A stretch of 50,558 bases of DNA from Deltaproteobacteria bacterium (GTDB lineage Bacteria; Myxococcota; JADLHZ01). Below the pieces are notes generated by a model. It worked only from the letters and a program-made list of their open reading frames with translations. It ran no database searches and was not told where the DNA came from. This document shows, piece by piece, positions 3,416 through 36,067 of the stretch. Each line of letters opens with the position of its first letter. Positions within the stretch are counted from its first letter, which is position 1. The stretch covers positions 1-50,558 of the forward strand of contig JADLHZ010000152.1 in the NCBI GenBank assembly GCA_020848545.1, in the 5' to 3' direction. The position numbers and the translations under genes are program-made.

Positions 3416-3673
3416 GTGCGGCGAGGATTTACCGATCAGTGGCACGAGTTCGACGAGAAGACGACGAAGGTCGGCATGTCGCCCGGCTCGCTGCTGCGCA
3501 AAGTCGTGATCGACTACAACCAGGGCCTCTTCGTGAACATGTCGCGCTGCAGCCCGGAGGTGATCGCCGAGCTCAAGAAGCGCCGCGATGAGGTCAAGGC
3601 GCTCGACATCGAGTCGGTGGTACTCACGGTGCTCGGCGAGTGGGCGGCGGATCGGCAAAAGAAGAAGCGCTAA
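3416..3673 (+). CDS. hypothetical protein, 85 aa
   Basis: A small unknown protein that begins with GTG 13 nt after the recombinase stop; an alternative ATG at 3476 (MSPGSLL) has a GAAGG upstream. The sequence is charged, probably helical, and ends in a lysine-rich tail. It may be the last gene of the IS66 unit. Its 3' end overlaps by 50 nt the 3' end of the glycosylase gene on the other strand, so one of the two termini may be the product of a junction created when the element inserted. No domain recognised. Confidence 0.45.
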   Translation: MRRGFTDQWHEFDEKTTKVGMSPGSLLRKVVIDYNQGLFVNMSRCSPEVIAELKKRRDEVKALDIESVVLTVLGEWAADRQKKKR

Positions 3674-12243: not shown

Positions 12244-12251
12244 GCGCGCTC

Positions 12252-15116: not shown

Positions 15117-17815
15117 CCCTTTTTCCCCAAATTTAGGTTCATCTGCTTTTCAGCGGAGTCGTCTCTCTTTGCTGGCGCGGGCAACGAACGCGCTCCGACC
15201 AGAAAGTTTTCGTAGAGGGCGCGCTCCTTGTCGCCGGGGGGCAGCACATCGACGATGCTCTGCGCCAGGCGTTGCATGCGGTCGACGCCACCCGGCGGCA
15301 GCGCGGTCGCGAGGAAGTCGGCGAGGTCTTGGCGCTCACCCGCACCCCAGAGGTTCGCTGCGCGATGGAGGACGTCGATGAGCGGGGCCAGCGTGCCAGC
15401 TAAGGCGGGCTCACCGAGCCCCTTCGTCTTCTTGCGCTCGACGGGGCCCTTGAGCGCGACCTTGTCGCCGGACTTCGTCAGGACGCCGTTGTCGGCGACG
15501 AGCTCTGAGAACTCGCAGCCCATCGACTGCGCCATATGGATAGCCTCACCACTCTCGACCTCAGAGGTGCCGTAGGCCCATCTCCAAATAACGTAAAACC
15601 GGCTCGACTCATCGACGTTGCCGGCGGCCTCACCAAGCACGATGCGCTGGAGCGCGTAGTCGGCGACGATGCCGCGCACCTTGTCGAGCAACTCGGCGAT
15701 GGTGACCTCCTCGCCGCTCAGCTTCAGCACGCGCTTGTGTCTCCCAAACACCTCGACGGCAGGGCCGATCGCCGACATGAAGAAGTCGGCGCCGCGAATG
15801 CCCTGGGACCAAAAGTAGTCGAGGCGCTCGTGGAGGCGGGACTTGAGGTCTGGTTCGACGTCGTCGAGGAATCCCTCGTCGTGGGCCGAGCGCTTGCGGC
15901 AGACGATGAAGACCGACGAAGCGAGTGCTGCACTGCCGATGGCGCGCGTGCGGCCGGGTTTCTCCGTCTCAATGGGCCACGAGGCGGTGACGACCAGGTT
16001 GTTGTCCAGCAGCGCCTTGAGCAGGGTCTCCCATGCTGACGTCGACTTGTGCGCGAACACCAGGACCATGATCCCATCGTCCTTGAGCGTGCGGTGCATC
16101 TCACCGAAGGCGCGGGACATCGCGGATTCGAAGAACTCAGCCGTCTTCTTGTACGCGGGGTTCTGCACCATCTCGGAACGCTTCGGTGTGACCTCGGTCG
16201 CTAGCGCTTCGGGATGAACCTCGCCGATGGCTCGGCGAAGCCAGATGTAGAAGTAGTCCGATAGATCGGAGTACGGAACGGCGTCATAGTACGGCGGGTC
16301 GGTGACGATCGCGTCGAACGATTTTGGGTCGAACGGGAGGTGGTCCGCAGATGCCCGCCGCACGTTCGACCTACCTGTGAACACAAGCAGTTCAATAGTG
16401 CCTGCAAGGTCCTCCACGATTTTGGGCCAACCTGCGGCCGCCTTGTTGAATGGGTTGGTCTCGGCGTAGTCCCAGGTCATCTGGACTGCTTGCATGCGAA
16501 ACGTGTTCTTCACACCGCGTCCGCCGGTGTAGTTGAGGATGCAGATCGTCGAACAGAAATCAGAGAGCTTGCTGACGCACAGTCCAAGGTACGTCGCCAC
16601 CGCTTGAGAGAACTCATCGGCCTCTGCGCCGAGATCGCTGTTGGCCTCGCGGATCTCCTTTACGATGGCGCGCACGTGCCGTGCGAAGGTCGCCATCGCG
16701 AGTGCCTGCCGGGGATTGTAGATGCTGCCCCAGGTCACAAATCCGTAGTTCTGCACGCGGAAGCCGAGCGTGCCCTTCGGCGGCAAGGGCTCGTGAGGGA
16801 TCGCAGGGATGTCGCCGAAAGCTTCGGGTTGAGGAACCCTCTCGGCGCGTTGGATCTCCGCACTGGTGGGAACGCGGTATCGCTTGCCCCTAGTGCCGTC
16901 GCGAACCGCGAGCGCTAACAATCGGTGGCCTAATCCGACGGACTTGCCTTTCATTTTGATGTAAGAGCCGGGCGAGATCTGCTGGCAACAAGGACACACC
17001 GCGTTTGCGCCCTTGATCGTACCAGCGTTGAGGTCGAGGTTTCCGGAAGGGTTCTCGACCACCTCGAAGTTGACGGACTTGCGGTCGCGCGCCGCTTTCG
17101 GAAGTAGCGCGACCACGAAGTCGTCCTTCTTGATGAGATAGCAGGAACCAATGAGAGGAATCTCGACGTTGCACGCTGGGTTGGAACACCGAACAGTGCG
17201 CGCCCAGATGTAGAACAGCGCCTCGTCCTTCTTGTCGGCTCGATAGTACTCTTCAATGTCGGCCGACGCTCGCTTCTGGACGATCTCGCCCCAGCGCTCG
17301 ATCTCCGAAACGAGCCGCGAGCGACCGAGAAGCGTGTCCTCGTTGGTGCGATTAGACCGGAGGTGCGCGAAACGCTGCGGATAGTAAAGCGTCGCAAGCT
17401 CGATGAGATACGCGACGGGATTCAGGTCGGTGGCGTAAGCTTCGGCGCCGAGTCGTTCAGCCTCGAGCGGCAAAGCCCCTCCTCCTGAGAACGGGTCCAG
17501 GGTCTTCGGGGCGTTGACGACGCCGTGATCCTTCATGATGGCGCGCAACCGGTCGACCTGCTTTTGCGGCTCCTTGCCAAGCTCCCACTCAAGGTTGTCC
17601 GTGATCAGTTTGTGGAACCGCTGCCGTTCTTCATCGTTGCGAGGCGCGGGCAAGAGCGCCGCCATCGTCGCTGCGCGCGCAGCCGCGAGCGGTCGACGTG
17701 CCCACCACAGGTGCAGCGTGCTGATGTGCCCGTGCCGAATGGACTTCTCCTTCGCGGAGTACTCGCTGATCTCCCCGATCGGAAGGCTGTCCTCAATGAG
17801 GCGCCGGTTGCTCAT
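15113..17815 (-). CDS. DUF1156 adenine-specific DNA methylase
   Basis: A 900-residue DNA methyltransferase of the DUF1156 (COG1743) family. The N terminus has the family signature EKSIRHGH and LHLWWARRPLAAARA at 23-48. The AdoMet-binding motif is LDPFSGGG at 106-113, and the catalytic DPPY is at 506-509, which marks an amino (N6-adenine or N4-cytosine) methylase; the family is assigned to adenine. A Zn-ribbon is suggested by C210-x4-C215 and the C274/C276/C277 group. The target-recognition part must lie in the long spacer or C terminus. It likely marks host DNA as self for this operon. ATGA overlaps join it to the helicase and ATPase genes. Confidence 0.9.
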   Translation of the reverse strand: MSNRRLIEDSLPIGEISEYSAKEKSIRHGHISTLHLWWARRPLAAARAATMAALLPAPRNDEERQRFHKLITDNLEWELGKEPQKQVDRLRAIMKDHGVVNAPKTLDPFSGGGALPLEAERLGAEAYATDLNPVAYLIELATLYYPQRFAHLRSNRTNEDTLLGRSRLVSEIERWGEIVQKRASADIEEYYRADKKDEALFYIWARTVRCSNPACNVEIPLIGSCYLIKKDDFVVALLPKAARDRKSVNFEVVENPSGNLDLNAGTIKGANAVCPCCQQISPGSYIKMKGKSVGLGHRLLALAVRDGTRGKRYRVPTSAEIQRAERVPQPEAFGDIPAIPHEPLPPKGTLGFRVQNYGFVTWGSIYNPRQALAMATFARHVRAIVKEIREANSDLGAEADEFSQAVATYLGLCVSKLSDFCSTICILNYTGGRGVKNTFRMQAVQMTWDYAETNPFNKAAAGWPKIVEDLAGTIELLVFTGRSNVRRASADHLPFDPKSFDAIVTDPPYYDAVPYSDLSDYFYIWLRRAIGEVHPEALATEVTPKRSEMVQNPAYKKTAEFFESAMSRAFGEMHRTLKDDGIMVLVFAHKSTSAWETLLKALLDNNLVVTASWPIETEKPGRTRAIGSAALASSVFIVCRKRSAHDEGFLDDVEPDLKSRLHERLDYFWSQGIRGADFFMSAIGPAVEVFGRHKRVLKLSGEEVTIAELLDKVRGIVADYALQRIVLGEAAGNVDESSRFYVIWRWAYGTSEVESGEAIHMAQSMGCEFSELVADNGVLTKSGDKVALKGPVERKKTKGLGEPALAGTLAPLIDVLHRAANLWGAGERQDLADFLATALPPGGVDRMQRLAQSIVDVLPPGDKERALYENFLVGARSLPAPAKRDDSAEKQMNLNLGKKG

Positions 17816-20800
17816 GCGTCATTCCTTGTCTGCGATGGCATCGCGAGCTGCAGCCCGTCGATGTCGATGGACACCCTGCGGGTGGTTTCATCGACCTGGG
17901 CTGTCGCCGCGTCTTTCGGCGCTAGCCGAAGAAGCTGGTCGTTCTTCGTGACGTACAGCGCGGCGTGGTTAGCGAGGTGCTGGAGCTGCGTCCACTCGGT
18001 GGACTTGAGCCACACCTTGCCGTCGCCATCGACGTCGCGCGCTACCAGGAAGTCCACCCCCTGGCCCTCGGCGTCGCTCGCCACGGCGTCGAAGCCGAGG
18101 CCTTCGAGACGCACGTCCTCGACGACGCGTCCTCGCGACGACTCGTACGCCCGCACCCGGTCCAGCACAACATCACTAGCCTTCGCCGCGCCGGCCCTGG
18201 CCGTAACGGGTAGGACTGTGACTACGCCGAGGAATTCGGGCGCGCGCGGGACGAGTTGCTGCTCGAGGCGAATCTCGGCGAGGCGCTCCTGTTGCCGCCG
18301 TTTGGCATCGTCCATGAGCCGCTGCTCGCGCCCGAGGGCGAGCGTCATGTCCTGGCCCGCACTCGACTTGCTCTCGAGGTCGAGGAGATGGTCGGAGTGA
18401 CGGCTGATCACAACGCGGAACGAGCGCTCGAGGTAACGCTCCTTCAATGCCAGCTCCTTGAGTCGTCCGCTCGCGACCTCCTCGACGAAGCGCGGGACAA
18501 GGTGTTCGAGGCAGAAGTGCGTCGCCGCGTGCTTGCGCACGTCGAAATCGGTGAGCGAAGGCGGCGGCGGGCCATCGATGCGCGGGCGCAGATCATGAAG
18601 ACGAATCGGGTGCGCGGGCTCGAAGGTGGGCGAGCCCGGCGCGCCGAACTCCCGCACGGCGAAGAGACGCTGCGAGAGCACGCGGCCCGTGCCATCGCCG
18701 ACGACGCCCCGAAAGAACCAGAGGAGCTCGGGCCCCTCCGCGTCGACGTCGAAGAACACCGCGCCACGCGTGAGAGCGTCCGCAGAGCTGGCTGACGCGG
18801 CCTGCAGCACCGACTCGAATAGTGGATGGCCCGGGCCAAGTAGCTCCGTGCGCCCATCATCGCCAACCGTCTTCTTATCGAAGGTGAGCGAGAGGTAGCT
18901 GCGCTCGACTGTGCCGAAACGACGGCGGAAATCGAGCTCCTGTTCGTGCCGCAGGTTCACAGGCACACGTTCGACGCGGAGCTTGCCGTCCGCGCGCCGC
19001 TCCCACCGCCCACGGTTTCGTTCCAGGGAGCGCGTAAAGAACGACTCGAGATGTGCCGGGATGAGCGCGTGGCGCTCGGAACGGGCAGCGTCTTGGCGAA
19101 GCTCCGGCAGGTTCAGGAAGCGACGCGCGAGGCCCTCCTCGCGGGCAGCGATCAGCGAGGCCTGGTGTGCCGGGCTCACTGCCTGCTCGATGCTCGAGAC
19201 GGCATCCTGCAGACGACGCCGGTTCGTGATGCACGAGATGATCAAGTCGGACAGTGAGATCTCGTGGTCGTCGAGCAAATCGCCAACGAGGTCGAACACG
19301 CGGTCGGAGCCGAGGCCCCGCCGCATCTCATCCATCTTGTTGAGCAGCGCGGCGAGCACAGCACCTTCGCGGGTGTCGGTCGCGACGAGGTTGAAGATGA
19401 AGACCTCGTTCTTCTGGCCGATGCGGTGGATACGACCCATTCGCTGCTCGAGCCGATTGGGGTTCCACGGGATGTCGTAGTTGACCATCTGGTTGCAGAA
19501 CTGGAGGTTGATGGACTCGCCGCCCGCCTCCGTCGCGACCATCACCTGCGCCGGTCCACGGAAGAGTTCCTGCTGCTTGCGTCGCTGCTCCATCGACAGC
19601 GAGCCAGCGATGACGGCCACCGTGAAACCTTGCCCGCGCAGCCGCTCGACGAGGAAGTCGAGCGTGTCCTTCGCTTCGGTGAAGATGAGGAGCTTCTCGC
19701 CACGCGCGGCGAGGCCCTCGTCGCGGAGGATCGCGTCGGTAAGCCTGATCAGCTTCGCCTCGATGCCGCTACCGAGAGCCGCGCGAGCGCGGCGCACGAG
19801 GCGTTCGAGGGCGAGCACCTCGGCCTGAAGCTCCTCAATCGACTCGGCATTAGTGAGGCGCTCGACCAACGAATCCTCGACCTTCCAGCGTTCCTCTTCG
19901 GCGAGGTCGTCGAGGTCGTCGACCTCCGCGCCATCGAGGAGGTCTTCGAGCACCGCATCGTTCTCCTCCGACTTCAGCGCGTTGCGAGCCTTGCTCGCAA
20001 CGAGAGCGCGAACCTGGTCGAGGAGCACCTGCAGCCGCTCGTGGCGCCGCGTGAGCGAGGCCGTGATCGCCGCGAGACTCGAGGTCAGGCGGCGCTGGAG
20101 AATGGTCATGGCGAAACCGACTGTGCGCTTCTCCTTTTGCATCGCCTTGTTGAAGTGCTCGGCGACGTATTCGGTGACTTCGTCGTAAAGTTCACGCTCG
20201 GCGCGGCTCAGGTCGAACGTGACCGTCTTGACCGTGCGCTGGGGAAAGAGCGGCGAGCCGTCGAACCGGCGCATCTCCTCCTTCAGACGACGCAAGATGA
20301 TGGGGTTGTCCGAGGAGCGCATCGCCTCTTCGAGGATCTGCCGGTCAGCGAAGAGGTCCTTGTCGAGCAGCTCGAGGAGCAGCCGGAAGTTTTCCGGGTC
20401 GCCCTTGTGCGGGGTGGCCGTGAGCAGCAGCAGGTGCTTCGTGCGCACCGACAGTTCCTCGCCGAGTCGGTAAAGCCGCGTCTTGCGCGTCTTCTGCGAG
20501 CGCACGCCCTGCTGGTACGCGGCCATCTTGTGAGCCTCATCAACGATGACAAGGTCCCAGTCGGCGTCCTTGAGCGGCTCGAGCACGTTGTCACGCGCGG
20601 CCCAGTACACCGAGGCTATGCAACGGTTGGTCTCGGTCCACGGGTTGCGGCCGACGTTGGCCTTCAGCATCCCGTTGTCGATGATCGTGAACTCCTCGGA
20701 GAACTTGCTCGCGAGTTCCTCCTGCCACTGCCGCGAGACCAGCGGCGGGACGACGATGAGCACGCGCTCAGCGAGCCCACGGAAGCGCAGCTCTTTGAGG

Positions 20801-21222
20801 AGCAGACCAGCCATGATGGTCTTGCCGGCGCCCGGGTCGTCCGCGAGCAGGAAGCGGACGAGCGGCGACTTCAACATGTAGCGGTAGACCGCATCGAGCT
20901 GATGCGGCAGCGGCGTGATCGTCGAGGCGTTCACCGCGAAATATGGGTCGTACTCGTAGGCCAGCCGAATCCGTGCGGCCTCGATGGCGAGGTGGAAGGC
21001 CTCCGGATCGCCGGAGAAATCCATCCCCTTCGCGCTGGAAAGCACCTTGAGCGCTTCGACCTGTGCGGCGGTGACAATGATGCCGGGGTAGAACTGCCGC
21101 GTGCGCGTACCAACGGCGTCGACCTGCAGCATCGTCCCAAAGTGGTCGACGCTCAGGACGCGCACGGGCTCGGGCCACAGCGGCCCCTCGACCACCATGT
21201 TCTTCTCGAGGAGCGCGCTCAC
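17812..21222 (-). CDS. SNF2-type helicase/translocase
   Basis: An 1136-residue superfamily 2 helicase of the SNF2/RapA kind, similar in plan to the DrmD helicase of class 1 DISARM. Motifs: Walker A DDPGAGKT (128-135), motif II DEAH (228-231), motif III TATPHKG (268-274), and motif VI MGRIHRIGQ in the C-lobe. The last ~100 residues (ESSRGRVVEDV, GLGFDAVAS, then STEWTQLQHL) match the outline of a DUF3883 domain, but the usual Glu-x-Lys is not evident, so nuclease activity there is doubtful. It starts with GTG overlapping the radC stop. It probably moves along DNA to bring methylase or nuclease to target. Confidence 0.88.
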   Translation of the reverse strand: MSALLEKNMVVEGPLWPEPVRVLSVDHFGTMLQVDAVGTRTRQFYPGIIVTAAQVEALKVLSSAKGMDFSGDPEAFHLAIEAARIRLAYEYDPYFAVNASTITPLPHQLDAVYRYMLKSPLVRFLLADDPGAGKTIMAGLLLKELRFRGLAERVLIVVPPLVSRQWQEELASKFSEEFTIIDNGMLKANVGRNPWTETNRCIASVYWAARDNVLEPLKDADWDLVIVDEAHKMAAYQQGVRSQKTRKTRLYRLGEELSVRTKHLLLLTATPHKGDPENFRLLLELLDKDLFADRQILEEAMRSSDNPIILRRLKEEMRRFDGSPLFPQRTVKTVTFDLSRAERELYDEVTEYVAEHFNKAMQKEKRTVGFAMTILQRRLTSSLAAITASLTRRHERLQVLLDQVRALVASKARNALKSEENDAVLEDLLDGAEVDDLDDLAEEERWKVEDSLVERLTNAESIEELQAEVLALERLVRRARAALGSGIEAKLIRLTDAILRDEGLAARGEKLLIFTEAKDTLDFLVERLRGQGFTVAVIAGSLSMEQRRKQQELFRGPAQVMVATEAGGESINLQFCNQMVNYDIPWNPNRLEQRMGRIHRIGQKNEVFIFNLVATDTREGAVLAALLNKMDEMRRGLGSDRVFDLVGDLLDDHEISLSDLIISCITNRRRLQDAVSSIEQAVSPAHQASLIAAREEGLARRFLNLPELRQDAARSERHALIPAHLESFFTRSLERNRGRWERRADGKLRVERVPVNLRHEQELDFRRRFGTVERSYLSLTFDKKTVGDDGRTELLGPGHPLFESVLQAASASSADALTRGAVFFDVDAEGPELLWFFRGVVGDGTGRVLSQRLFAVREFGAPGSPTFEPAHPIRLHDLRPRIDGPPPPSLTDFDVRKHAATHFCLEHLVPRFVEEVASGRLKELALKERYLERSFRVVISRHSDHLLDLESKSSAGQDMTLALGREQRLMDDAKRRQQERLAEIRLEQQLVPRAPEFLGVVTVLPVTARAGAAKASDVVLDRVRAYESSRGRVVEDVRLEGLGFDAVASDAEGQGVDFLVARDVDGDGKVWLKSTEWTQLQHLANHAALYVTKNDQLLRLAPKDAATAQVDETTRRVSIDIDGLQLAMPSQTRNDA

Positions 21223-21941
21223 GTCGCGTCGCCTACCGCAGGAGACGCCGCAATCTTCGACGAAGCGGGGCGCAAAAGCCCTGCGTCTGCCATGCTGAAG
21301 GTGCGCGGTCCGGCGACGACAAAGTGGTCGACTATGGGAATAGACAGTGCGTCGAACACCCTGACGAGGGTCTGCGTGATGCTGACGTCCTCGTCGGACG
21401 GCTGGGCCACGCCGCCCGGGTGGTTGTGCGCAAGGACGACCTTGGCCGCGTGGTGACGAAGCGCTGCTTCGACCACGAGTCGTGGATAAACGGGCGCGCT
21501 CGCGAGACTGCCCTCGTGCAGTGGCAGCGAGCGCAGCACGTGGTTCTCGTGGGTCAACAGGACGAGGAGGAACACCTCGTTGGTCGCCGTCGCCAGCTCG
21601 TCGACTGCGAAGCGCGCAAGGTCCTCCTTAGTGTTGAGCTGCGGCTTGTGGCCCCATCGGTCGCGCAGGTAGCGACGGGTCAGCGCGGGCATCATGTGCA
21701 GGAGCGTGGCACCCATCTCGCCGATGCCCTCGACCTTCGTGAGGTCGGCGACGGGCGCGTCGAGCACGTTGGAGAGCGAGCCAAACCTGTCGAGCAACGC
21801 ATGCGCGAGCGGCTTAACGTCCTTCCGCGGCACCGCATAAGTCAGCAGCAACTCGAGCACCTCATGGTCCTCGAACGCGCTGAGCCCGCTCGTGGCGAAG
21901 CGATCGCGAAGCCGCTGGCGGTGACCATCGAGGTAGGACAT
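21219..21941 (-). CDS. RadC/JAB (MPN) domain protein
   Basis: A 240-residue RadC-family protein and the first gene of the operon. It has an N-terminal helix-hairpin-helix-like region (VEGIGEMGATLL, about 69-80) and a C-terminal JAMM/MPN metal centre with the RadC box HNHPGG...SDED at about 170-183; the usual HNHPSG has Gly in place of Ser. RadC proteins are common on mobile elements and near defence genes, but their activity is not established and the old DNA-repair link is doubtful. The JAMM residues are kept, so a metal hydrolase (peptidase or nuclease) is possible. The ATG has only a weak GGCGAG upstream. Confidence 0.85.
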   Translation of the reverse strand: MSYLDGHRQRLRDRFATSGLSAFEDHEVLELLLTYAVPRKDVKPLAHALLDRFGSLSNVLDAPVADLTKVEGIGEMGATLLHMMPALTRRYLRDRWGHKPQLNTKEDLARFAVDELATATNEVFLLVLLTHENHVLRSLPLHEGSLASAPVYPRLVVEAALRHHAAKVVLAHNHPGGVAQPSDEDVSITQTLVRVFDALSIPIVDHFVVAGPRTFSMADAGLLRPASSKIAASPAVGDAT

Positions 21942-22319: not shown

Positions 22320-23009
22320 TCAGCACCCGACGTTCGTCACCCAGCGCGGGTCGACCGTAATGTCATTGCCACGAAAATCGCGACAGAGAAGCAGAAGCTT
22401 GTCGCCCACCTGGGCCTTCTTATCGACGATAGCTCGCGCCGAGGACGCACTGTCCGGGAACTCTGGGCTGCGAAACACAATCAGGGAACCGGAATGAATG
22501 ATCTCAGAAAGCGGCGTCGCGTTGCTCGCCGGCCCCGCTCGGGTCCATGAAAGCTTCTCTTTTCGCCGCTTCTCGGCCTCGCGGGTGAGGACCAGCCGTT
22601 CGTAGCACTGCTCGGCCGCGAGCTGCTCGACCTGCGCCTGCTGTAGGCCGAACTCCGGGTCATCCGGTCCGAGTCGAACGCCGAGTATCGAGTGTCCCAT
22701 GCGGAAACGATCGAAGTGTATCGCATCGCGATCAACAGCTACCCGCACCGGCTTCGAATAGGTCTCGAGGAGTTCCTTCAGCTTTTGCTGACTGATGGAA
22801 AACCAACCTTCGCCGGCGCCATCGGCCACCACGGAAGCAGTCAACGATGGGAATACAAGGACGAGAACACCATCCACGAAGCCAACGAGCATACGTTCGT
22901 TCTTGTTGCGCCGGCGCCCCCGTGGACGCGACGTCTTCTCGATAGCAAGCTGCTGCTTGTACCAGGCCGGATCGACATCGAAATTGAACAGAGTAGCCGT
23001 CGTGGTCAT
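22320..23009 (-). CDS. hypothetical protein downstream of ardA
   Basis: An unknown 229-residue protein. The ATG at 23009 (MTTTATLFNF) is preferred; a GTG 21 nt further upstream would add 7 residues. The N-terminal half reads as alternating beta strands with a clear hydrophobic strand (MLVGFVDGVLVLVF) after a basic stretch (RPRGRRRNKNER); the middle is helical and charged. No catalytic motif is evident. It lies about 100 nt downstream of ardA on the same strand and may be co-transcribed with it, which would fit an accessory anti-defence or plasmid function, but this is only context. Confidence 0.65.
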   Translation of the reverse strand: MTTTATLFNFDVDPAWYKQQLAIEKTSRPRGRRRNKNERMLVGFVDGVLVLVFPSLTASVVADGAGEGWFSISQQKLKELLETYSKPVRVAVDRDAIHFDRFRMGHSILGVRLGPDDPEFGLQQAQVEQLAAEQCYERLVLTREAEKRRKEKLSWTRAGPASNATPLSEIIHSGSLIVFRSPEFPDSASSARAIVDKKAQVGDKLLLLCRDFRGNDITVDPRWVTNVGC

Positions 23010-23059
23010 GCGACAGTAGGTCGCGAACACGAACAGGGATCAAGCGACGCCGTAACACT

Positions 23060-23073
23060 CGCCCGATCGGGCG
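23060..23073. terminator. perfect 14-bp palindrome between ardA and next gene
   Basis: The sequence CGCCCGATCGGGCG is a perfect palindrome located 39 nt beyond the ardA stop and 51 nt before the start of the next gene on the same strand. With no run of T after it, it is not a standard intrinsic terminator. It could be a weak terminator, an RNA-processing hairpin, or a dimeric protein-binding site. Confidence 0.4.
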
Positions 23074-23111
23074 GGAGCCGAGCCGCCGGGTTCGGACCGG
23101 CGAGCCACGGT

Positions 23112-23645
23112 TCAGTGATGGTTTAGCACCCAGACATTCCCGTTCAACAACTGAACGAAGCTCAAGTCGCCGCTAAGCTCTGCGTCTCGCGCGAAGGATT
23201 CGTAGTCGAAGTAAGCCGCGAGGGTCCCGAGCATCTTGTCCAGGTCGTAGCAGCCGCTGATGTACTCTTCCGCCCAGTGCGTCGCCGACTGCCACTCGCC
23301 TCCATCGTGCTCGGCGATCGCCTCGCCGATGCTTTCGAGGTCGCTCGCGATGCCGTGGTCGATCGCGGCTTGCACCTTCTCGCAGCCCCACTCCTCGCAC
23401 GCCCGCGCGATGGCGATGATCGCATCGAGCGCCTCGTGCTCGCGGATCTTGATCCCCTCCGAGTCGTGCGCCGCGTGCTCGTGCTCAGGCGACAACATGA
23501 GCGCGGTGATCGCGGCCTGCAGCTCGCTCGCGTCGGCGTAATCGCTCGGGGTCAGCCACCCGCCCACGTGCCGGCCGGCGTTGAACTCGGCGAGATCGGC
23601 AAAATAGACTCGGAACTCGGCGGCATCGTTCTTTTTCGTGTTCAT
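23112..23645 (-). CDS. ardA: ArdA-type antirestriction protein
   Basis: ArdA is a DNA-mimic protein of mobile elements that blocks type I restriction enzymes. The 177-residue product has the family plan: an N-terminal beta segment with VYFADLAEFNAGRHVGGWL (about 13-31) followed by a DYADASEL turn, an acidic middle, the EEYISGCYDL region at about 128-137, and the conserved terminal part YFDYESFARDAEL (about 145-157). It is strongly acidic, as expected for a DNA mimic. The start has AAGGGAG about 8 nt upstream and follows a leader that is duplicated at 25231-25290. Confidence 0.85.
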   Translation of the reverse strand: MNTKKNDAAEFRVYFADLAEFNAGRHVGGWLTPSDYADASELQAAITALMLSPEHEHAAHDSEGIKIREHEALDAIIAIARACEEWGCEKVQAAIDHGIASDLESIGEAIAEHDGGEWQSATHWAEEYISGCYDLDKMLGTLAAYFDYESFARDAELSGDLSFVQLLNGNVWVLNHH

Positions 23646-23700
23646 CGTTCGCTCCCTTTCGCCGCTCGGCGGCGTTTCGTTTCGCCCGCAAAGCGACCGG
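23642..23700 (-). promoter_or_regulatory. ardA leader, copy 1 of a duplicated element
   Basis: The start codon, Shine-Dalgarno AAGGGAG and a GCCGCC-GA-GCGGC-type hairpin upstream of ardA are almost the same as those upstream of the gene at 24848-25234. About 30 of the first 32 positions agree, and similarity then weakens over another 20-25 nt. The shared part covers ribosome binding site, hairpin and probably the promoter, so both genes are likely to be regulated alike. Confidence 0.6.
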
Positions 23701-23937
23701 CGCGAGCTCGTGGGGTGGCAGCGACGGAATTTTGGGACCCACGCAGTGGGCGAGCGAGCGAAGCGAGGAAAATTCCAGAGCTGACGGGGACCCTACGCGC
23801 GAGGAGCGCGCAGCGCGGAAGCCGAGTCGCAGGGCGAATGAAACGACGACGAGTGGCACAGGGCCGCACGACCACGCGAAAGGCCGATGCCGCAGCCAGT
23901 TTGTCCCCGCGCCCTCGCCATGGCATTGCTCGCGGTC

Positions 23938-24843
23938 ATGGGGATTCCGACCTACGATCGATTCATCGAGCCGCTGCTCCGGCTGCTCGCGCAACACCCG
24001 GACGGCCTGTCGACCAAGAAGGTCTACGAAACGCTCGCCGACACGGTGGGCCTCTCGACCGAGGATCGCCAGGAGCTCCTTCCGAGCCAACGCCAGCTCG
24101 TGTTCCACAACCGCATCGGGTGGGCACAGGATCGACTCAAGCGCGCCGGGCTCGCTCAGTCGGCCGCGCGCGGCGTTTGGCAGATCACCGCGAAGGGTCG
24201 CGCATTCCTCGGTGGGCAGCGATCGCCCTTCGACGAAGCCGCGCTCGACGAGCTCACCTACGTTGAAGCCGGCAGCAAAGCGTCCGCTACCGAAGTCGAG
24301 TCGGCCACCGTGGCCACGGAGACGCTTCGCGGATCGCCGGACGAGCAGATCGAGCGAGCGCTAGCCGAGATTCGTGCCAGCGTCGCGCGCGAGCTGCTCG
24401 AGCAGATCGGCGCGTCGTCACCGCAGTTCTTCGAGGAGCTCGTCTTGGATCTGCTGCACGCGCTCGGCTACGGCATCAACCGGCAGGATCTGCAGCGCGT
24501 CGGACGCTCGGGCGATGGCGGGATCGACGGGATCATCTCGCTCGATCGGCTCGGACTCGAGAAGGTCTACGTTCAGGCGAAGCGCTGGCAGAACCGCGTC
24601 GGACGACCCGAGGTGCAAGGCTTCTTCGGCGCGCTAGCGGGTCGCCGCGCGAAGAAGGGCGTGTTCATCACGACGTCCGACTTCACTCACGACGCGCGCG
24701 AGTTCGCCGAGTCGGTGAGCGATCAAATGGTCATCATCGACGGAAAGCGCCTGACGAATCTCATGATCGAGTTCGGCGTGGGTGTGCAGCACAAGGCACT
24801 GCGCGTGCCGACGGTCGACGGCGACTACTTCGAGGAGCTGTAG
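23938..24843 (+). CDS. mrr: Mrr-type modified-DNA restriction endonuclease
   Basis: Mrr enzymes cut DNA with foreign methylation. The 301-residue product begins MGIPTYDRFIEPLL, which matches the N-terminal winged-helix start of E. coli Mrr (ATG 23938; the longer frame is not needed). Residues about 1-95 are the Mrr_N domain. The catalytic Mrr_cat domain lies at about 160-280: FFEELVLDLLHALGYG, then GRSGDGGIDGII with the metal-binding Asp, and VYVQAKRW with the Gln-x-Lys of the PD-(D/E)XK motif, and GVFITTSDFT. All key residues are kept. It is divergent from ardA and convergent with the next gene. Confidence 0.92.
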   Translation: MGIPTYDRFIEPLLRLLAQHPDGLSTKKVYETLADTVGLSTEDRQELLPSQRQLVFHNRIGWAQDRLKRAGLAQSAARGVWQITAKGRAFLGGQRSPFDEAALDELTYVEAGSKASATEVESATVATETLRGSPDEQIERALAEIRASVARELLEQIGASSPQFFEELVLDLLHALGYGINRQDLQRVGRSGDGGIDGIISLDRLGLEKVYVQAKRWQNRVGRPEVQGFFGALAGRRAKKGVFITTSDFTHDAREFAESVSDQMVIIDGKRLTNLMIEFGVGVQHKALRVPTVDGDYFEEL

Positions 24844-24847
24844 CGCG

Positions 24848-25234
24848 TTATCCGTAGCGGAGTGAGCGTTCGAGGCTGATTCGTTCTCCGTTTTCGGTTG
24901 CCCATCCGCGTTGCTCCGCGGTGTAGCCATCGAAGTAGTCACGGTCGGTATCTCCAGGCGCCATGCCGACAAGCGAGATCACCGCGTCGCGCGCCTCTCG
25001 GCCATCGAGGCCGTCGCGGAACCCGCGCACCGGGCTTCCGACCCAGAGCTGACCCCGTGCGAAGATCACGCGCCGGCCGTGCACGACCTCGACGGTGAGG
25101 TGATCCCGGGTCCGGTCCGGATGATCGAATAGCTCGAAGGCGCGGATCACGATTGCGGGCTTGTTCACGCCGTCGATGCGTAAAGTGAATAGCCAAGCTG
25201 GGTCGTCTCGGTAGGTGCTTCGTCGTGCTGTCAT
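24848..25234 (-). CDS. hypothetical protein sharing the ardA leader
   Basis: An unknown 128-residue protein. ATG 25234 is supported by AAGGGAG about 9 nt upstream and by the near-identity of this leader with that of ardA. The sequence is beta-rich in the first half (PAWLFTLRIDG, HLTVEVVHGRRVIFARGQLWVG) and acidic toward the C terminus (PGDTDRDYFDGYTAEQ). No family recognised. The shared leader and strand place it in the same regulon as ardA, so an anti-defence or early-transfer role is possible, but nothing in the protein itself proves this. Confidence 0.65.
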   Translation of the reverse strand: MTARRSTYRDDPAWLFTLRIDGVNKPAIVIRAFELFDHPDRTRDHLTVEVVHGRRVIFARGQLWVGSPVRGFRDGLDGREARDAVISLVGMAPGDTDRDYFDGYTAEQRGWATENGERISLERSLRYG

Positions 25235-25290
25235 CGTGCGCTCCCTTTCGCCGCGCGGCGGCTTCGTTGTTTCGCGCGCCCGAAGGGACA
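25231..25290 (-). promoter_or_regulatory. duplicated leader, copy 2
   Basis: This is the second copy of the leader described upstream of ardA, with AAGGGAG and a hairpin formed by GCCGCC and GCGGC arms directly before the start codon at 25234. The two copies are on the same strand and about 1.6 kb apart. Confidence 0.6.
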
Positions 25291-25498
25291 GGCGTTGGCC
25301 GGGACTCGGCGCATCCGTGGCAGCGTGCTTTGTGAGAGCGCCGCGAACCGACGCCACGCGGAGGGAACAGAAAGCGCGCTGACGCGAGCGACAGCGTGTG
25401 CGTCGCGCCCGAGCCAATCGCCGGAGCGAACAACGAAGGCGACGCGCGGGCATCGCAGCGCACGCGACAAAGGAGGAGCGCGCTGTGCGATCGTCTCG

Positions 25499-25672
25499 CT
25501 ATCGCTCGCCGAAGTGACAGCGGCACTGCGAGTTCTTCCACGCCGCAAACGCCGCGATTATCTCTGACGCAGCGAGGTCATCTCCGTTCGAAGGTGCTCG
25601 TGGTCGAGACTGGCTACGGTCGAAGTCGCGGCGGGTTGCTTCAGCGGGCTCGGGTTTTTCGTTCGAGCTCAT
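25499..25672 (-). CDS. possible 57-aa small protein
   Basis: A short open frame begins at ATG 25672, inside the 3' end of the HTH gene in another frame, and runs to 25499. The predicted product is charged in its first half and has a helical segment DDLAASEIIAAFAAWKNS in the second. Overlap with the upstream gene by 32 nt would allow translational coupling. It also occupies part of an otherwise empty 406-nt gap (25235-25640). I see no other gene in that gap. Low confidence, since random open frames are frequent at this GC content. Confidence 0.3.
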   Translation of the reverse strand: MSSNEKPEPAEATRRDFDRSQSRPRAPSNGDDLAASEIIAAFAAWKNSQCRCHFGER

Positions 25673-26945
25673 CGATTGTGTCACGGACCTCGGCCAACCT
25701 AGCGCGCAGCACGGCGTCGCACCCTTCCGCTGTTACCGACTCGTCCAGCACGCCGAGTTCGCAGGCGAGCTCGATGAGAGCCGACAATGGCGCCTTCGGC
25801 CGACCGATGCACAGCGTGCGCAACGTTGCGCCTGTGACCCGAAGCTCGCCCTTGAGCCGCGCGCGAAGCAGCGCCCAACGGACAACGCGGCGGCGGGTAG
25901 CGTCGTCAAGGTCTGCCAACATCTCGTGGGCGTTGGCAGCGAGTTCGCCTCGGGTGCGAAGGTTCTCGGCCTGCATGTCGAGGTCGGCGCTAAATGCCTC
26001 CCACGATGCGCGGTCGCCTTGCCACAATCGAGGAGGATATTGCCCGAGCAGCAGGCGCGCCTCGTCCTGCCAGCCGTCGTTCCTCTCTCTTGCGCCGCTT
26101 TCGCGGGCGACCTTCGCAAGCAGCACCTGGGTTTGACTCATAGCTACGTTGACCTGCTCGATCCATGGCGCGAGCACGACCCCGTATGCGCGTTGGGCCG
26201 TCAGCAACTCCGCTGCCAGGTGATCGTTCAACGCGGCCGCGATGCGCACGCGCAGCGGCTCGATGAACTCGGCAATGAGGAGCACGAGTAAAGTCCGCGG
26301 TCGCACTTTTTTGCTCTCGCTCCGTTTCGAGATTCCGCGCACCGCCCGCGCGCTGAGCTCTAGGAACATGAAGTGCGAGAGCTCAGCTTCGAGCAGCGCA
26401 AGAACTTGCGTGAGCACTGGCTCGAGCGCGCGCAGAAGACGTTCTACGGCGAGCGGAAGAAAGTCCTCGGCGCGGATCCCGGCTTCGCTTTCGGCGGAGA
26501 CGCCACCGACCTCAGCGAGGATGCACAACAACGCGCGACCGGTAACGGTGAGGCCCGAGATTTTTTCCAGCGCGTCTTTTCGCAGAAGCGCGCTGGCCGC
26601 CTGACGACCGCCTTTGGGCGCGTTTCGGTGCCGCCGTGAAGAATTGACGTACTTGTTGATTGTGCTCGGACCAACCCCAAAGAGCTTGGCGAGATGCTCG
26701 TTACTGAGCTGAAACTGCGCGCGTACCTCGCTCAACCAACCACCCACAAGCTCTTCGACTATGGTCGCGCTACGTTTGCCCGAGCTCAACAGCAAGGCAT
26801 CGGTTGCCGCGTCGAACCCGCGCAGCATGAACCGTAGCGCCTCGTCGAAGTGACTGATGGGAGGCGCGGCGGGGTTGCCGTCGCTTGTGGTGCCGAGCTG
26901 ATGTCGCAGGCTCGTCTTCGGGGAACCTCCGCGTCGTTGAGCCAT
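25641..26945 (-). CDS. unknown HTH-containing protein, 434 aa
   Basis: I do not recognise the family. A helix-turn-helix of the replication/regulator kind is visible at about residues 77-103 (FQLSNEHLAKLFGVGPSTINKYV). After it the protein is almost entirely helical and leucine-rich, with a basic patch SKRSESKKVRPR at about 210-221. The C terminus (ARLAEVRDTIDELERKTRAR) is a likely coiled coil. Two tiny membrane-peptide ORFs precede it on the same strand, the nearer one ending 10 nt before this ATG. A DNA-binding regulator or replication protein of the element is the best guess. Confidence 0.7.
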   Translation of the reverse strand: MAQRRGGSPKTSLRHQLGTTSDGNPAAPPISHFDEALRFMLRGFDAATDALLLSSGKRSATIVEELVGGWLSEVRAQFQLSNEHLAKLFGVGPSTINKYVNSSRRHRNAPKGGRQAASALLRKDALEKISGLTVTGRALLCILAEVGGVSAESEAGIRAEDFLPLAVERLLRALEPVLTQVLALLEAELSHFMFLELSARAVRGISKRSESKKVRPRTLLVLLIAEFIEPLRVRIAAALNDHLAAELLTAQRAYGVVLAPWIEQVNVAMSQTQVLLAKVARESGARERNDGWQDEARLLLGQYPPRLWQGDRASWEAFSADLDMQAENLRTRGELAANAHEMLADLDDATRRRVVRWALLRARLKGELRVTGATLRTLCIGRPKAPLSALIELACELGVLDESVTAEGCDAVLRARLAEVRDTIDELERKTRAR

Positions 26946-27218: not shown

Positions 27219-28352
27219 TCAGCGCGATGCTTCCGGTCGGCGCAAGCGCCGGAGCTCCCCCACGAGCTCGGCGATCTTCGGGAGACTGTCGGGATCCTTC
27301 GGCGCCACGAGTCGCTCGCCCCGCTGCTCCGCGGTCCTCAGGTCGCGCAACACGCCGGTTGTCTCGCCGATGAAGCGCAGCACGACGTCTTCATATCGGG
27401 CGAGCACCCGGCCGACGTCGTCGGTCTTCACCGCCGGCGTCGCGCCGCACAGCTCCTGCCGCAGCCACGGTGCGATGCTCGCGAGCGTCCCGCATCGCCA
27501 CGCTGGGATGTTGAAGAACCGCTGCGTGCTGCGCTTCTCGATCCGACGCGCGACCTCGGCTGCACGATCCTCGCTCTCGAAGACGAGCACGAGGACCGGT
27601 TTGCGCGCGTCCGGATACTTTTCGACGTAGGGCGAGACGCCGCCGCCGAGCGCGCGTAACGGGGAGAAGAGCTTCGTGTACTTCTCCACTTTCCTCTCGA
27701 CGCCACGCTGGGTCTTCGTCGAGCGCTCGATCTCGACGAGGTAGCGCGCGGTCTCTGTCTCGATCGTAATGTCAGGGATGACCTTGCGCGAGACGCGCTG
27801 GCGTTCAGCGCCGTACTCTTCCCACGAAAACTGCGTGTGCTCGTTCGAAGAGAACCACGCGAACATGCTGGCGCGGTTGCGCACGTCGATCCAATCGCCG
27901 CAGCCCTCGGTCACGATGCGCAGGTAAAGCTCGGTGCCCATCATCAGATGGTCGATGAACTCGGCGTCGAGGTCGTCGTGAATCGACGGCGCGTAATCGC
28001 GGCCCAGCGCGGACGCCGCCTGCTGGCGCCCCATGTCCGTGAGGCGGAAGAGATCGATGGCTCGCGCTCGAACGTACGTTGTTTGCCGCCCGAAGAATCC
28101 GAGCCTCTCGATCCGGCGAGCCAAACGAATCGGCGCCCACGAGCCACCCGGGCATCGCAACAGCTCGCCGACCTGCTCCGCCGTCAATCGCCGCAGCTTG
28201 TACAGCTCCTGCACCAAGAACCGCCCGCGCTCAGGCAGCCGCGACCCTCGCCGCCGCGCCTTCCCCTTCTTTTTCTTCCTCTCTTCTCTCTCTTCAATAC
28301 TCACACACTTTTCACCTTCTACTTCCTCTGATCCTTTCTCCTCTTCACTCAT
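27219..28352 (-). CDS. replication-relaxation family protein
   Basis: Predicted plasmid replication-relaxation protein of 377 residues. ATG 28352 (MSEEEKGSEE) follows a strong GGAGGAGG and is preferred to a longer frame. The N terminus is a charged Glu/Lys region, followed by a winged-helix (about 60-130: LVQELYKLRRLTAEQVGELL). The core shows the family segment VIPDITIETETARYLVEIERSTKT (about 190-215), where Asp and Glu lie as in a PD-(D/E)XK-like fold, and LVLVFESEDRAAEVARRI. It acts in plasmid replication or mobilisation in known members. Its gene is next to the nested inverted repeat and iteron-like sites, and parB lies beyond them. Confidence 0.7.
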   Translation of the reverse strand: MSEEEKGSEEVEGEKCVSIEEREERKKKKGKARRRGSRLPERGRFLVQELYKLRRLTAEQVGELLRCPGGSWAPIRLARRIERLGFFGRQTTYVRARAIDLFRLTDMGRQQAASALGRDYAPSIHDDLDAEFIDHLMMGTELYLRIVTEGCGDWIDVRNRASMFAWFSSNEHTQFSWEEYGAERQRVSRKVIPDITIETETARYLVEIERSTKTQRGVERKVEKYTKLFSPLRALGGGVSPYVEKYPDARKPVLVLVFESEDRAAEVARRIEKRSTQRFFNIPAWRCGTLASIAPWLRQELCGATPAVKTDDVGRVLARYEDVVLRFIGETTGVLRDLRTAEQRGERLVAPKDPDSLPKIAELVGELRRLRRPEASR

Positions 28353-28388
28353 TAACCCTCCTCCCACCCCGCACCCCCGCTTTTCACC

Positions 28389-28490
28389 CACCCATGTCTC
28401 ACTCTTCAAAACTGGAGACCTCACCACCATGTCGTTGCGGGGGTGAGGTCTCCAGTTGCCCGCGAAGCGGTGAAGAGTGAGACATGGGTG
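28389..28490. repeat. nested perfect inverted repeats (candidate ori/oriT)
   Basis: A 20-bp arm at 28389-28408 is exactly inverted at 28471-28490, and inside it a 16-bp arm at 28410-28425 is exactly inverted at 28442-28457. The central loop is 16 nt, and 13 unpaired nt lie on the right side between the two stems. This can form a long bulged cruciform or hairpin. It stands 37 nt before the replication-relaxation start codon, a place typical of oriT or replication control sites. Confidence 0.8.
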
Positions 28491-28517: not shown

Positions 28518-28575
28518 AACGTGGTCTTAACGTGGTCCGGCGCTGACCACGTTAAGACCAAGATAAGACCACGTT
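28518..28575. repeat. four-copy 9-mer cluster (iteron or parS-like)
   Basis: The 9-mer AACGTGGTC occurs at 28518-28526 and 28529-28537, and in inverted form (GACCACGTT) at 28545-28553 and 28567-28575. The two inner copies form part of a longer palindrome (28521-28560). The last copy overlaps the parB stop codon. The layout suggests a protein-binding cluster: parS/partition site for the adjacent ParB, or iterons for the replication protein. Confidence 0.75.
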
Positions 28576-29377
28576 ATGACCGCATCTCCGGCGCCGGAGA
28601 TTTTTCCATGAAGCGGTCGAGCACGTGCCCGGCGGCCTCGGCGATGCTTCGCAGCTGACCCTCCGCCACGTCGTCGAGCAGCCGATCGCACTGTACGCGA
28701 AGCTCGACGACGAACCCGGCGCCGCGCGCGTCGAAGCGCTTCGACCGAGGTTCGCCCGTTGCCTTCTTTGCATCGTCGGCCATGGCGCGCAGCTCGCGGC
28801 TCGATGCCTTCCCGTCGCGCACGAGGTTCGCGGCCGTCACGCCCTCCTTCACTGACGACTTGGCGATCCTGGCGACCTCCTCGGCCTGCGCGAAGCTGAG
28901 GCGTCCTTTGCGAATGGCTTTGACGACCTCCGGATCGAGCTTGAGCAACGCGAGGTGTCGGCGGACCCAGCTTCCGGCCTTGCTCACGCGTCGAGCGAGC
29001 GTTTCGGCGTTTTTCTCGTCGGCCATCATCTCGCGGAGCGCGTCGGCGATGTCGAGCGCGGGCAGATCCTCGCGCTGGATGTTCTCCACGAGCTGCACCG
29101 TGCGCGTCGAGGCCAGGTCGCCATCGACCACGATCGCGGTCAGCGCTTCGATGCCGGCCAGCCTCGCGGCGGCGAGCCGGCGGTGCCCGGCAACCACCCG
29201 ATAGGCCGCCTCGCCCGCGGCCGTCTTCGTGACGAGGATCGGCTGCAGCTGCCCCACCGTGTTCAGCGACTCGGCGAGCTCCTCGATCCCGGTGAGCTTC
29301 GATCGAACGTTGCCGTCGTCCTCGATCAGATCGGTGAGTGGAATACGAATCGCGGTCTCTGACTGTTGTGCGCCCAT
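28574..29377 (-). CDS. parB: ParB-family partition protein
   Basis: A 267-residue ParB/Noc-type protein. ATG 29377 is chosen because GGAGG stands 6 nt upstream. The N-terminal ParB domain has VVAGHRRLAAARLAG (62-76) with the GHRR CTP-binding box and QLVENIQREDL (95-105); a helix-turn-helix follows at about 125-150 (LARRVSKAGSWVRRHLALLKL). The C-terminal part lacks a strong dimerisation pattern. No parA is in the window; plasmid ParB-like proteins without ParA exist. The 9-mer cluster at its 3' end may be its binding site. Confidence 0.85.
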   Translation of the reverse strand: MGAQQSETAIRIPLTDLIEDDGNVRSKLTGIEELAESLNTVGQLQPILVTKTAAGEAAYRVVAGHRRLAAARLAGIEALTAIVVDGDLASTRTVQLVENIQREDLPALDIADALREMMADEKNAETLARRVSKAGSWVRRHLALLKLDPEVVKAIRKGRLSFAQAEEVARIAKSSVKEGVTAANLVRDGKASSRELRAMADDAKKATGEPRSKRFDARGAGFVVELRVQCDRLLDDVAEGQLRSIAEAAGHVLDRFMEKSPAPEMRS

Positions 29378-29551
29378 GGCGACCTCCTGAAAGCCGCGTA
29401 TATCAGCGCGATGCATAAAGCAACGTTTGTTATGTTGTTACACGAATAACTCTCTTTGTAGCTCGTTCGGTGACGACACGATCTGACGCACTGGCCGCGT
29501 AGGATTGTTTGCGTGCACCCACCCGACACGAGTCGTGCTAAAGGACGGTCG
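29378..29551. promoter_or_regulatory. A+T-rich divergent promoter region
   Basis: The gap between parB (minus) and the nuclease gene (plus) must hold promoters for both directions. It contains an A+T-rich core at about 29415-29450 with an inverted repeat GTTAT...ATAAC (arms 29430-29434 and 29447-29451, by eye). This may be an operator. No clear consensus -35/-10 pair can be assigned. Confidence 0.4.
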
Positions 29552-35081: not shown

Positions 35082-35909
35082 CTAAGCAGCCAACAACTCG
35101 AGCGCGTCGACGACGTTCTGCGGCGACGCTCCGAGCTCGCATCCCAGTTCGCGGACTATCGCCGTGGCGCGCTCCACACGGGAAAACGCCGTCGCGACCG
35201 AGATGTCCTCGCTCGCGGCGATCTCTTGATACCCGCGCCCGCGGTAACGAGCCACAAACGCACGCGAAAGCTCCTCGCCGCAGCTGCGCTCGATACCTCG
35301 ACGCAACGTCTCGCCCATGCGAGGGCGAATGAACTCTTCGTGCGAATCCTCACAATGATGCGTCGCCGTCTCGGCTTGTTCGCGTTGAAAGTACTCGCTC
35401 CACAGGCACGACAGGACGCGCTTCTCGTCGAAGCCGACGCCGTTTTTCGCTACTGCCCAGCGCACCGCGAGTCTCACCAACTCGCCGCACAGACGATCGC
35501 CGCTCGTGAGCGTCGTCGGTTTGTCCGCAACTGGAACGGACACGTCGCCTGCAAAAGCCGCCCGAACTTGATCGGCCAGCGCTCGTCTCTGATTCCACGT
35601 CGACGACTTCGCGTATGCCGCCTGCCGCAAGCGGGTGCGCAGGGCCGAGCGAAGCTCGCGACCGCCGAGGCTCGCCAGATCCTCCGCCACGCGCTGATTC
35701 AATCGCCGAGCGCGTTCGCAGATCTGAGCGAACAGCTCTTGAAGGAGATCTTCGGCTGCCACGACGTTCGCATCCGCGCGAACCGCCAGTCGCGCATGAC
35801 GCGCCAGCGCCAGGAGCTCCGACGGCAGACGGCGAATGACCTGCCCGCGAGCCAAGGTGGCGAAGAAATCATGAAGAGAATCACTGGTGTTCCTCGGTTC
35901 GTTTGCCAT
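35082..35909 (-). CDS. sigma-70-like factor (ECF type)
   Basis: A 275-residue protein resembling a region 2/region 4 sigma factor. The N-terminal part (about 45-85: ANVVAAEDLLQELFAQICERARRL) fits sigma region 2, and a C-terminal helix-turn-helix (about 225-255: GRGYQEIAASEDISVATAFSRVERA) fits region 4. A long linker with two Cys lies between them. Such unusual sigma-like proteins often control nearby genes; the Sel1 gene is divergent and may be a target. An anti-sigma factor is not seen. It could also be a non-sigma regulator with the same HTH fold. Confidence 0.6.
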   Translation of the reverse strand: MANEPRNTSDSLHDFFATLARGQVIRRLPSELLALARHARLAVRADANVVAAEDLLQELFAQICERARRLNQRVAEDLASLGGRELRSALRTRLRQAAYAKSSTWNQRRALADQVRAAFAGDVSVPVADKPTTLTSGDRLCGELVRLAVRWAVAKNGVGFDEKRVLSCLWSEYFQREQAETATHHCEDSHEEFIRPRMGETLRRGIERSCGEELSRAFVARYRGRGYQEIAASEDISVATAFSRVERATAIVRELGCELGASPQNVVDALELLAA

Positions 35910-36067
35910 GGTGGCCGCATCCTTTCGACGGAACCACCGTGCCCCGAGGGGTCGGTTGGTGGAGCATCACAGGCCGTCTCGCCTCCGCTCGCTCTTGATG
36001 AGTTATGTGAAGCATTTGTGACACGGCGCTTCGCCGGTCGTCAAAGCCTTTCTTCACTCCTATAGAT

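What the first reader, a model, noticed from the sequence alone, without database searches (positions are those of the whole stretch)
23642..25290. Same leader in front of ardA and an unknown gene: possible single-strand promoter pair
The leaders at 23642-23700 and 25231-25290 share about 30 of 32 first positions, including AAGGGAG and a GCCGCC/GCGGC hairpin, on the same strand. In conjugative plasmids, repeated hairpin promoters active on single-stranded DNA drive anti-defence genes in the leading region. This pair fits that logic.
Basis: partly seen in the sequence, partly recalled or inferred. Interest (0 to 1): 0.72.

Follow-up and report, generated by a model that had tools for sequence, protein, structure and literature searches.

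The report
Repeated hairpin leaders before establishment genes
In front of two genes of a mobile DNA element, and of eight more such genes elsewhere in the same genome, sits a shared folded leader that probably controls when genes protecting the element in a new host are switched on, though how it works is not yet shown.

Summary
The 30-of-32 match is real and far above chance. Both genes are on the minus strand, so the block is hairpin P3, AAGGGAG, spacer, ATG: the end of a larger leader. A covariance model finds 10 copies in the 8-Mb genome with a clear gap to noise: before ardA (3, one a remnant), two DUF932 genes, the unknown gene and its paralogue, two 64/65-aa genes and a 119-aa gene. 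All 10 have a second hairpin (P1) starting 82-98 nt before the ATG, whose arms differ in sequence but stay complementary, also in a leader found blind. Six of 10 lie downstream of a Replic_Relax (MOB_C relaxase) gene on the same strand, preceded by an oriT-like hairpin. So repeated hairpin leaders on establishment genes near transfer functions: supported. Frpo-type ssDNA promoter: not supported (no -35/-10, arms unconserved, genes point away from the candidate oriT), though mismatches favour folding of the template strand, so action in ssDNA stays open. Closest known: EGeRS1 of pLS20, then Frpo.

The parts
23643..23786 (-). Class I leader of ardA (P1 hairpin, linker, A-rich stretch, P3, SD, ATG)
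   Evidence: CM R1 own-genome match E 3.5e-30, a training member; CM R2 match 23643-23689 E 4.6e-9, also training
23726..23776 (-). P1 hairpin of the ardA leader; arms GGAATTTT / AAAATTCC around CCTCGCTTCGCTCGCTCGCCCACTGCGTGGGTCCC
   Evidence: inverted-repeat scan; coordinates
23660..23674 (-). P3 hairpin CGCCGC-CGA-GCGGCG just upstream of the SD
   Evidence: listed as terminator-like on the + strand
23652..23658 (-). Shine-Dalgarno AAGGGAG of ardA
   Evidence: sequence
23112..23645 (-). ardA, antirestriction protein, 177 aa
   Evidence: PF07275 E 5.8e-24
25232..25435 (-). Class II leader of the unknown gene; about 204 nt conserved (83%) with the leader of its paralogue on contig C54
   Evidence: blastn; CM R2 match 25232-25279 E 8.5e-9
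25323..25379 (-). P1 hairpin of the unknown gene's leader; arms GCGCGCTTT / AAAGCACGC with one A.C mismatch (sense)
25250..25262 (-). P3 hairpin GCCGC-CGC-GCGGC
25241..25247 (-). Shine-Dalgarno AAGGGAG of the unknown gene
   Evidence: sequence
24848..25234 (-). Unknown gene, 128 aa (P0001); one paralogue, C54:503-880
   Evidence: paralogue 68% by search, 66% in the alignment; no Pfam match
23887..24843 (+). Mrr-type restriction endonuclease gene lying between the two leader genes on the other strand
   Evidence: PF04471 E 1.9e-38
28410..28457 (-). Candidate oriT hairpin: AACTGGAGACCTCACC-CCCGCAACGACATGGT-GGTGAGGTCTCCAGTT, 16-bp perfect arms, apex CAACGAC
   Evidence: same architecture at other Replic_Relax loci; its role as oriT is inference
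27219..28430 (-). Replic_Relax (MOB_C-type relaxase) gene; true start probably near 28265, after the hairpin (inference from the homology match ending at 28250)
   Evidence: PF13814 E 9.7e-7; homology range
28574..29416 (-). ParB-family gene upstream of Replic_Relax
   Evidence: PF02195 E 1.7e-13
21219..21941 (-). RadC-like gene downstream of ardA
   Evidence: PF04002 E 2.7e-33

Best explanation
The pair belongs to a family of about ten two-part leaders that mark the establishment (anti-defence) genes of MOB_C-type conjugative elements in this genome. P3 plus the Shine-Dalgarno is a fixed translation-start module. P1, whose right arm starts 82-98 nt upstream of the ATG, is a hairpin kept by selection on single-strand folding, not on arm sequence. 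Shown: copies, placement, spacing, arm complementarity, neighbourhood. Inferred: that the leader times expression, keeping these genes low in a resident element and letting them be expressed on entry, as proposed for EGeRS1. Whether P1 acts in nascent RNA as an insulator or attenuator (I give this about 0.35), in single-stranded DNA (about 0.30, of which a true Frpo-like promoter 0.20), as a double-strand regulatory site (about 0.15) or not at all (about 0.20) is open.
For: 10 own-genome matches at E <= 1.8e-5, next 0.26 (8 of the 10 were training rows, C23 and C154:14545 were not). All 10 sit before an SD and an ORF start. P1 right arm begins 82-98 nt before the ATG in 10 of 10. Arm covariation: positions 4-8 of ten stems, 48 of 50 Watson-Crick against shuffled mean 18.5, maximum 43 in 20,000 shuffles. 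The blind member C23 has a new arm pair: 8 Watson-Crick pairs, two A.C, four more. Gene identities: ardA, DUF932. Six of 10 are downstream of Replic_Relax on the same strand. F plasmid's leading region also holds antirestriction, ParB and DUF932 genes. EGeRS1 is likewise repeated, rich in inverted repeats and directly upstream of the RBS.
Against: No expression data. The leaders were found in one genome only. P3 is invariant, so its pairing is unproven. The ardA P1 alone is weak (DNA z -1.8 sense, -1.3 antisense; 8-bp arms of that kind occur elsewhere in the window by chance). Mismatches fit template-strand folding, which does not suit a plain mRNA leader. Four of 10 leaders (two on C42, C54, C23) have no Replic_Relax gene in the stretches read; the genome-wide search lists none on those contigs.
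Confidence: 0.6

Rival explanations
1. Frpo-like single-stranded promoter: P1 folds on the incoming template strand and RNA polymerase starts there.
For: Helix extension allowing template-strand G.T pairs is 22 nt against a permuted mean of 7.7 (P 0.001); allowing mRNA-strand G.U adds 1 nt against 2.4. The antisense strand folds more stably in 11 of 11 P1 regions with DNA and with RNA parameters. F plasmid Frpo1 and Frpo2 show the same sign. Placement and gene content fit.
Against: No -35/-10 in 10 leaders or the window stretch. Arms vary freely. pLS20 EGeRS1, whose transferred strand is reported as non-template, shows the same fold asymmetry in 5 of 5 copies, so the energy sign is not diagnostic. 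By z-score the antisense is better in only 7 of 11, worse in 3, equal in 1. Genes point away from the candidate oriT.
Confidence: 0.2
2. Double-strand regulon like the IncN CUP elements: a conserved promoter/operator bound by an element-encoded repressor gives a burst on entry.
For: Repeated conserved upstream sequence before ardA-type genes; a gene with weak HTH_3 similarity (E 0.00053, below the Pfam cut-off) lies at 25641-26945.
Against: No promoter-like pair in the leaders; the inverted-repeat arms, the natural operator candidate, differ in sequence from leader to leader.
Confidence: 0.15
3. Copied start regions and incidental palindromes: P3-SD is a duplicated start site and the P1 hairpins are intergenic palindromes without regulatory role.
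For: P3 does not vary; the P1 core word CCCRCTKCGYGGGTCCC also occurs in unrelated viral contigs; GCCGC hairpins also precede SDs of rplJ-like and rplP-like genes (gene names read by eye).
Against: Fixed spacing in 10 of 10, covarying arms also in a blind member, restriction to element genes. A stem of 5 bp or more before an SD is not common here (13 of 135 starts, 5 of them leaders, against 6.3% of random positions).
Confidence: 0.2

Closest known systems
EGeRS1 of the pLS20 plasmid family (PMC8708921; passages and sections 11, 13, 20 read)
   Same: Several copies, directly upstream of the RBS of establishment operons including an anti-restriction gene, rich in inverted repeats, no sigma promoter found; antisense strand folds better in the five copies folded here
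   Different: EGeRS1 is 420-751 bp and 62-95% identical; here about 140-200 nt with two classes and unconserved arms; different phylum, ArdA in place of ArdC; read-through blocking not tested
Frpo1/Frpo2 of plasmid F (PMC9849209 and PMC11541004, passages read)
   Same: Repeated folded leaders before leading-region genes, with a DUF932 gene and an antirestriction gene in that region; template strand folds better
   Different: Frpo rebuilds -10/-35 boxes and F genes point towards oriT (oriT position recalled); neither is seen here; no sequence match to any plasmid of the collection
CUP elements of IncN plasmids (recalled; one search gave listings only)
   Same: Conserved upstream sequence before ardA and other leading-region genes
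   Different: CUPs carry ordinary promoters with repressor sites (recalled); no promoter seen here
MOB_C relaxase family, Rel_PF13814 (PMC5357655, one passage read)
   Same: Replic_Relax domain in the gene beside the leaders
   Different: Mobilisation was not tested; the hairpin as oriT is my inference

Membership tests
Frpo single-stranded promoters | Repeated leader before leading-region/anti-restriction genes | tested here: met
   10 copies, gene identities
Frpo single-stranded promoters | Stem-loop carries canonical -35 and -10 boxes | tested here: not met
   0 pairs in 23000-26000 and in 10 of 10 leaders, both strands; host promoter rules may differ
Frpo single-stranded promoters | Fold present on the transferred strand, which is the template | tested here: inconclusive
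   template strand favoured by the wobble test, but the transferred strand is unknown and geometry argues against
Frpo single-stranded promoters | Sequence relation to known Frpo | tested here: not met
   no blastn match in 72,556 plasmids for two leaders of 10, one of each class
Frpo single-stranded promoters | Transcription from single-stranded DNA | not testable with these tools
   needs in vitro or mating experiment
[quoted passage not shown]
   10 of 10
EGeRS1 | Multiple inverted repeats | tested here: met
   P1 in 10 of 10; P3 in 10 of 10, shifted in the C42 DUF932 leader and only 4 bp in C23 (C23 read by eye)
EGeRS1 | Length 400-750 bp and sequence identity to EGeRS1 | tested here: not met
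   about 140-200 nt; no plasmid match
EGeRS1 | Blocks read-through from upstream promoters | not testable with these tools
   needs reporter fusions
CUP elements | Ordinary promoter under an element repressor | tested here: not met
   no promoter-like pair found; repressor binding not testable; definition recalled
MOB_C relaxase (neighbour gene) | Replic_Relax domain PF13814 | tested here: met
   window, C1, C154, C21
Rfam families | Match to a curated RNA family | tested here: not met
   no leader match at gathering scores in the window or at E <= 1 in five leader loci (its one match is a microRNA model elsewhere in L039)

The most novel reading that the evidence does not exclude
A new class of entry-timed control element: leaders whose hairpin is conserved purely as a fold of the single-stranded template DNA, with free arm sequence, so that anti-restriction genes of MOB_C elements are expressed only while the element is single-stranded, without rebuilding a -35/-10 promoter.
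Probability: 0.2. Interest if true: 0.82.

Novelty: new variant of a known kind. Interest (0 to 1): 0.6.

Why it matters
How conjugative elements switch on protective genes before host defences act is known in detail for few plasmids. A compact, repeated leader of this kind outside the enterobacterial and Bacillus systems gives a handle to list establishment genes, including unknown ones such as the 128-aa protein, and to test whether the fold works in DNA or RNA. The linked hairpin before Replic_Relax genes is a ready candidate oriT for a poorly studied relaxase family.

Tried and rejected
The loose descriptors alone are not enriched. GCGAAN{5,9}GCCGCN{2,6}GCGGC gave 28 hits against 52 for the reversed control, and GCCGCN{2,6}GCGGCN{0,5}AGGRG gave 18 against 33. 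I picked family members among them by eye, then replaced this by the covariance model R2, which separates them. Because the model was built from 8 of the 10, only C23 and C154:14545 are unseen rows, and the second is a near copy of the C21 leader. In the own-genome scan only 150 of 10,788 first-look candidates were scored, so weak copies may be missed.

Other genomes: R1 matched 3 other genomes of 195, all in similar coding-like sequence. R2 matched 4 others at E 0.002-0.008, which is chance level for 195 genomes; the best one, read out, lies at what looks like the end of a coding region and shows no P1. Only 16 or 31 candidates per genome were scored, so absence is weak evidence. Exact patterns gave nothing in genome contigs or viral contigs; two looser viral patterns gave 26 and 9 contigs, none of the 9 a leader by eye. 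P0001 has no relative by pattern and tblastn in genome contigs and no tblastn match in plasmids or phages.

P3 as a structure supported by covariation: rejected, invariant. Fold-energy asymmetry as proof of Frpo: rejected, since EGeRS1 shows it too. Structure of P0001: pLDDT 54, too low to use; its only good fold match is a 123-aa phage protein at 38% identity. The P1-like hairpin before the 142-aa C54 gene lacks the standard P3 and is not counted among the 10 leaders, though it is one of the stems. In the shuffle counts the C154 class II stem was left out because its arms equal those of C21.

Full report
What is there. The reported pair is real. Both genes are on the minus strand, so the shared block is the end of a leader: A-rich stretch, hairpin P3, AAGGGAG, about five bases, ATG. 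ardA (23112-23645) is a true ArdA. The other gene (24848-25234, 128 aa) matches no Pfam family, has one paralogue in the genome and no tblastn relative in the plasmid or phage collections. A plus-strand mrr gene lies between them. By blastn the two leaders share only the last 63 nt, at 81%.

A family, not a pair. Upstream sequences of paralogues, motif scans and patterns pointed to more leaders. A covariance model of the 3' part (A6, R2) finds ten matches in the own genome with E from 2.9e-9 to 1.8e-5, then 0.26. They are two in the window, two on C154, two on C42, and one each on C1, C21, C23 and C54. Over 264,759 bases of fetched stretches (18 sources, C23 not among them) the nine leaders there scored 5.7e-7 or better and the next match 0.11. 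The genes are ardA in the window, ardA on C21, an early-broken ardA on C154, the unknown gene and its C54 paralogue, DUF932 genes on C42 and C23, 64- and 65-aa genes on C42 and C1, and a 119-aa gene on C154.

The second hairpin. An inverted-repeat scan and inspection show that every one of the ten leaders has a larger hairpin, P1. Its right arm begins 82-98 nt before the ATG in all ten. Class I (ardA window, C1, C154, C42) has a conserved core ending in CCCRCTKCGYGGGTCCC. Class II has CTGTYCC...CTCTCAC or a relaxed form of it. Next to the core the arms are mostly TTT/AAA; further out they differ wholly between leaders yet pair. With nine non-redundant stems (the C54 142-aa gene's included), 50 of 54 pairs beyond the third are Watson-Crick against a shuffled mean of 18.0 and maximum 46 in 20,000 shuffles. 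With the blind C23 stem added, positions 4-8 give 48 of 50 against 18.5, maximum 43. The register was set by me at the core edge and stems were partly recognised by their pairing, so C23, found by a model that does not include P1, is the cleanest test. The small P3 hairpin does not vary and is neither supported nor contradicted by covariation; the C42 DUF932 leader has it shifted.

Which strand folds? Where P1 helices are interrupted, the mismatch is often A.C on the coding strand, which is G.T on the template strand. Allowing these lengthens ten helices by 22 nt in all (null 7.7, P 0.001); allowing coding-strand G.T adds 1 nt (null 2.4). This test was thought of after seeing the data. Template-strand folds are more stable in 11 of 11 P1 regions, but after allowing for composition only in 7 of 11. 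As yardsticks, F Frpo1 and Frpo2 fold better on the template strand, and so do all five pLS20 EGeRS1 copies, although the paper reports that pLS20 transfers the non-template strand. The asymmetry is therefore interesting but does not prove a single-stranded promoter.

The element. In the window the order on the minus strand is ParB, Replic_Relax, a gene with weak HTH similarity, unknown gene with leader, ardA with leader, a gene without Pfam match, RadC-like gene, then a defence island. C1 has T4SS and coupling-protein genes, ParA/ParB, a tyrosine integrase, then ParB, Replic_Relax, leader gene, DUF2958, Prim-Pol and PrlF/YhaV. C154 and C21 repeat Replic_Relax followed by leader genes on the same strand. 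Replic_Relax is listed as the MOB_C relaxase superfamily in one survey (PMC5357655, passage) and used as a relaxase model in another (PMC11104534, passages). No other relaxase appeared among the 39 C1 proteins scanned; other C1 frames and its first 2 kb were not scanned. Directly upstream of Replic_Relax lies a long inverted repeat with variable, nearly always perfect arms and an apex around CAACGAC. I see it at 6 of 7 own-genome loci (not C120; on C1 with one mismatch and CAACGAT) and, with CAACGAC or CAACCAC, at 4 of 4 loci in four other genomes of the phylum (C1 read by eye). I read it as a candidate oriT. If so, the six linked leader genes all point away from it. A gene transcribed from the incoming strand and entering early must point towards oriT, as F leading genes do (oriT position recalled). 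This counts against a plain Frpo role.

Promoters. The window stretch holds no sigma-70-like pair, nor does any of ten 200-nt leaders on either strand; TAnnnT occurs in 2 of 10. Promoter rules of this host are not known to me. The phylum is probably Myxococcota; that is an inference from genome sizes and no call names it.

What it most likely is. A repeated structured leader of establishment genes, closest in layout to EGeRS1 (PMC8708921), for which the authors report no constitutive promoter, blocking of read-through, and an unknown mechanism. Frpo (PMC9849209, PMC11541004, passages) is the second comparison. Searches for print on such leaders in these bacteria, or on structured leaders in integrative elements, returned nothing on this element in the listings seen; that covers only the open-licence library.

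Noticed in passing
28410-28457; L119:2310-2355; L121:4896-4935; L122:1706-1757; L123:7182-7233; L124:4090-4133; L125:5563-5624: Long perfect inverted repeat (10-23 bp arms, sequence variable) with apex CTCCCAACGACnnGAT-like directly upstream of Replic_Relax genes across several genomes: candidate oriT of MOB_C-type elements.
   Followed up: partly
3624-21222: Minus-strand defence island: proteins matching HmaA/HmaB/HmaC, McrBC and IetA/IetS models sit downstream of ardA and RadC in the same element.
   Followed up: no
L077, L082, L089, L093 (viral contigs): The word CCCRCTKCGYGGGTCCC sits inside long outer inverted repeats of changing sequence in unrelated viral contigs, the same plan as class I P1 (partly read by eye).
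   Followed up: no
35889-36006: SAM-I/IV riboswitch on the minus strand, near a plus-strand S-adenosylmethionine synthetase gene at 37268-38413.
   Followed up: no
L168:4009-14446 (pLS20): All five EGeRS1 copies fold better on the antisense strand with DNA and RNA parameters, not noted in the passages I read.
   Followed up: partly
1080-3403: IS66-type transposase followed by a tyrosine recombinase gene at the left end of the window.
   Followed up: no
23660-23674 and 25250-25262: Read on the plus strand P3 is a hairpin followed by a T-rich stretch (TTTCGTTTCG), listed as terminator-like; antisense transcripts might stop there.
   Followed up: no
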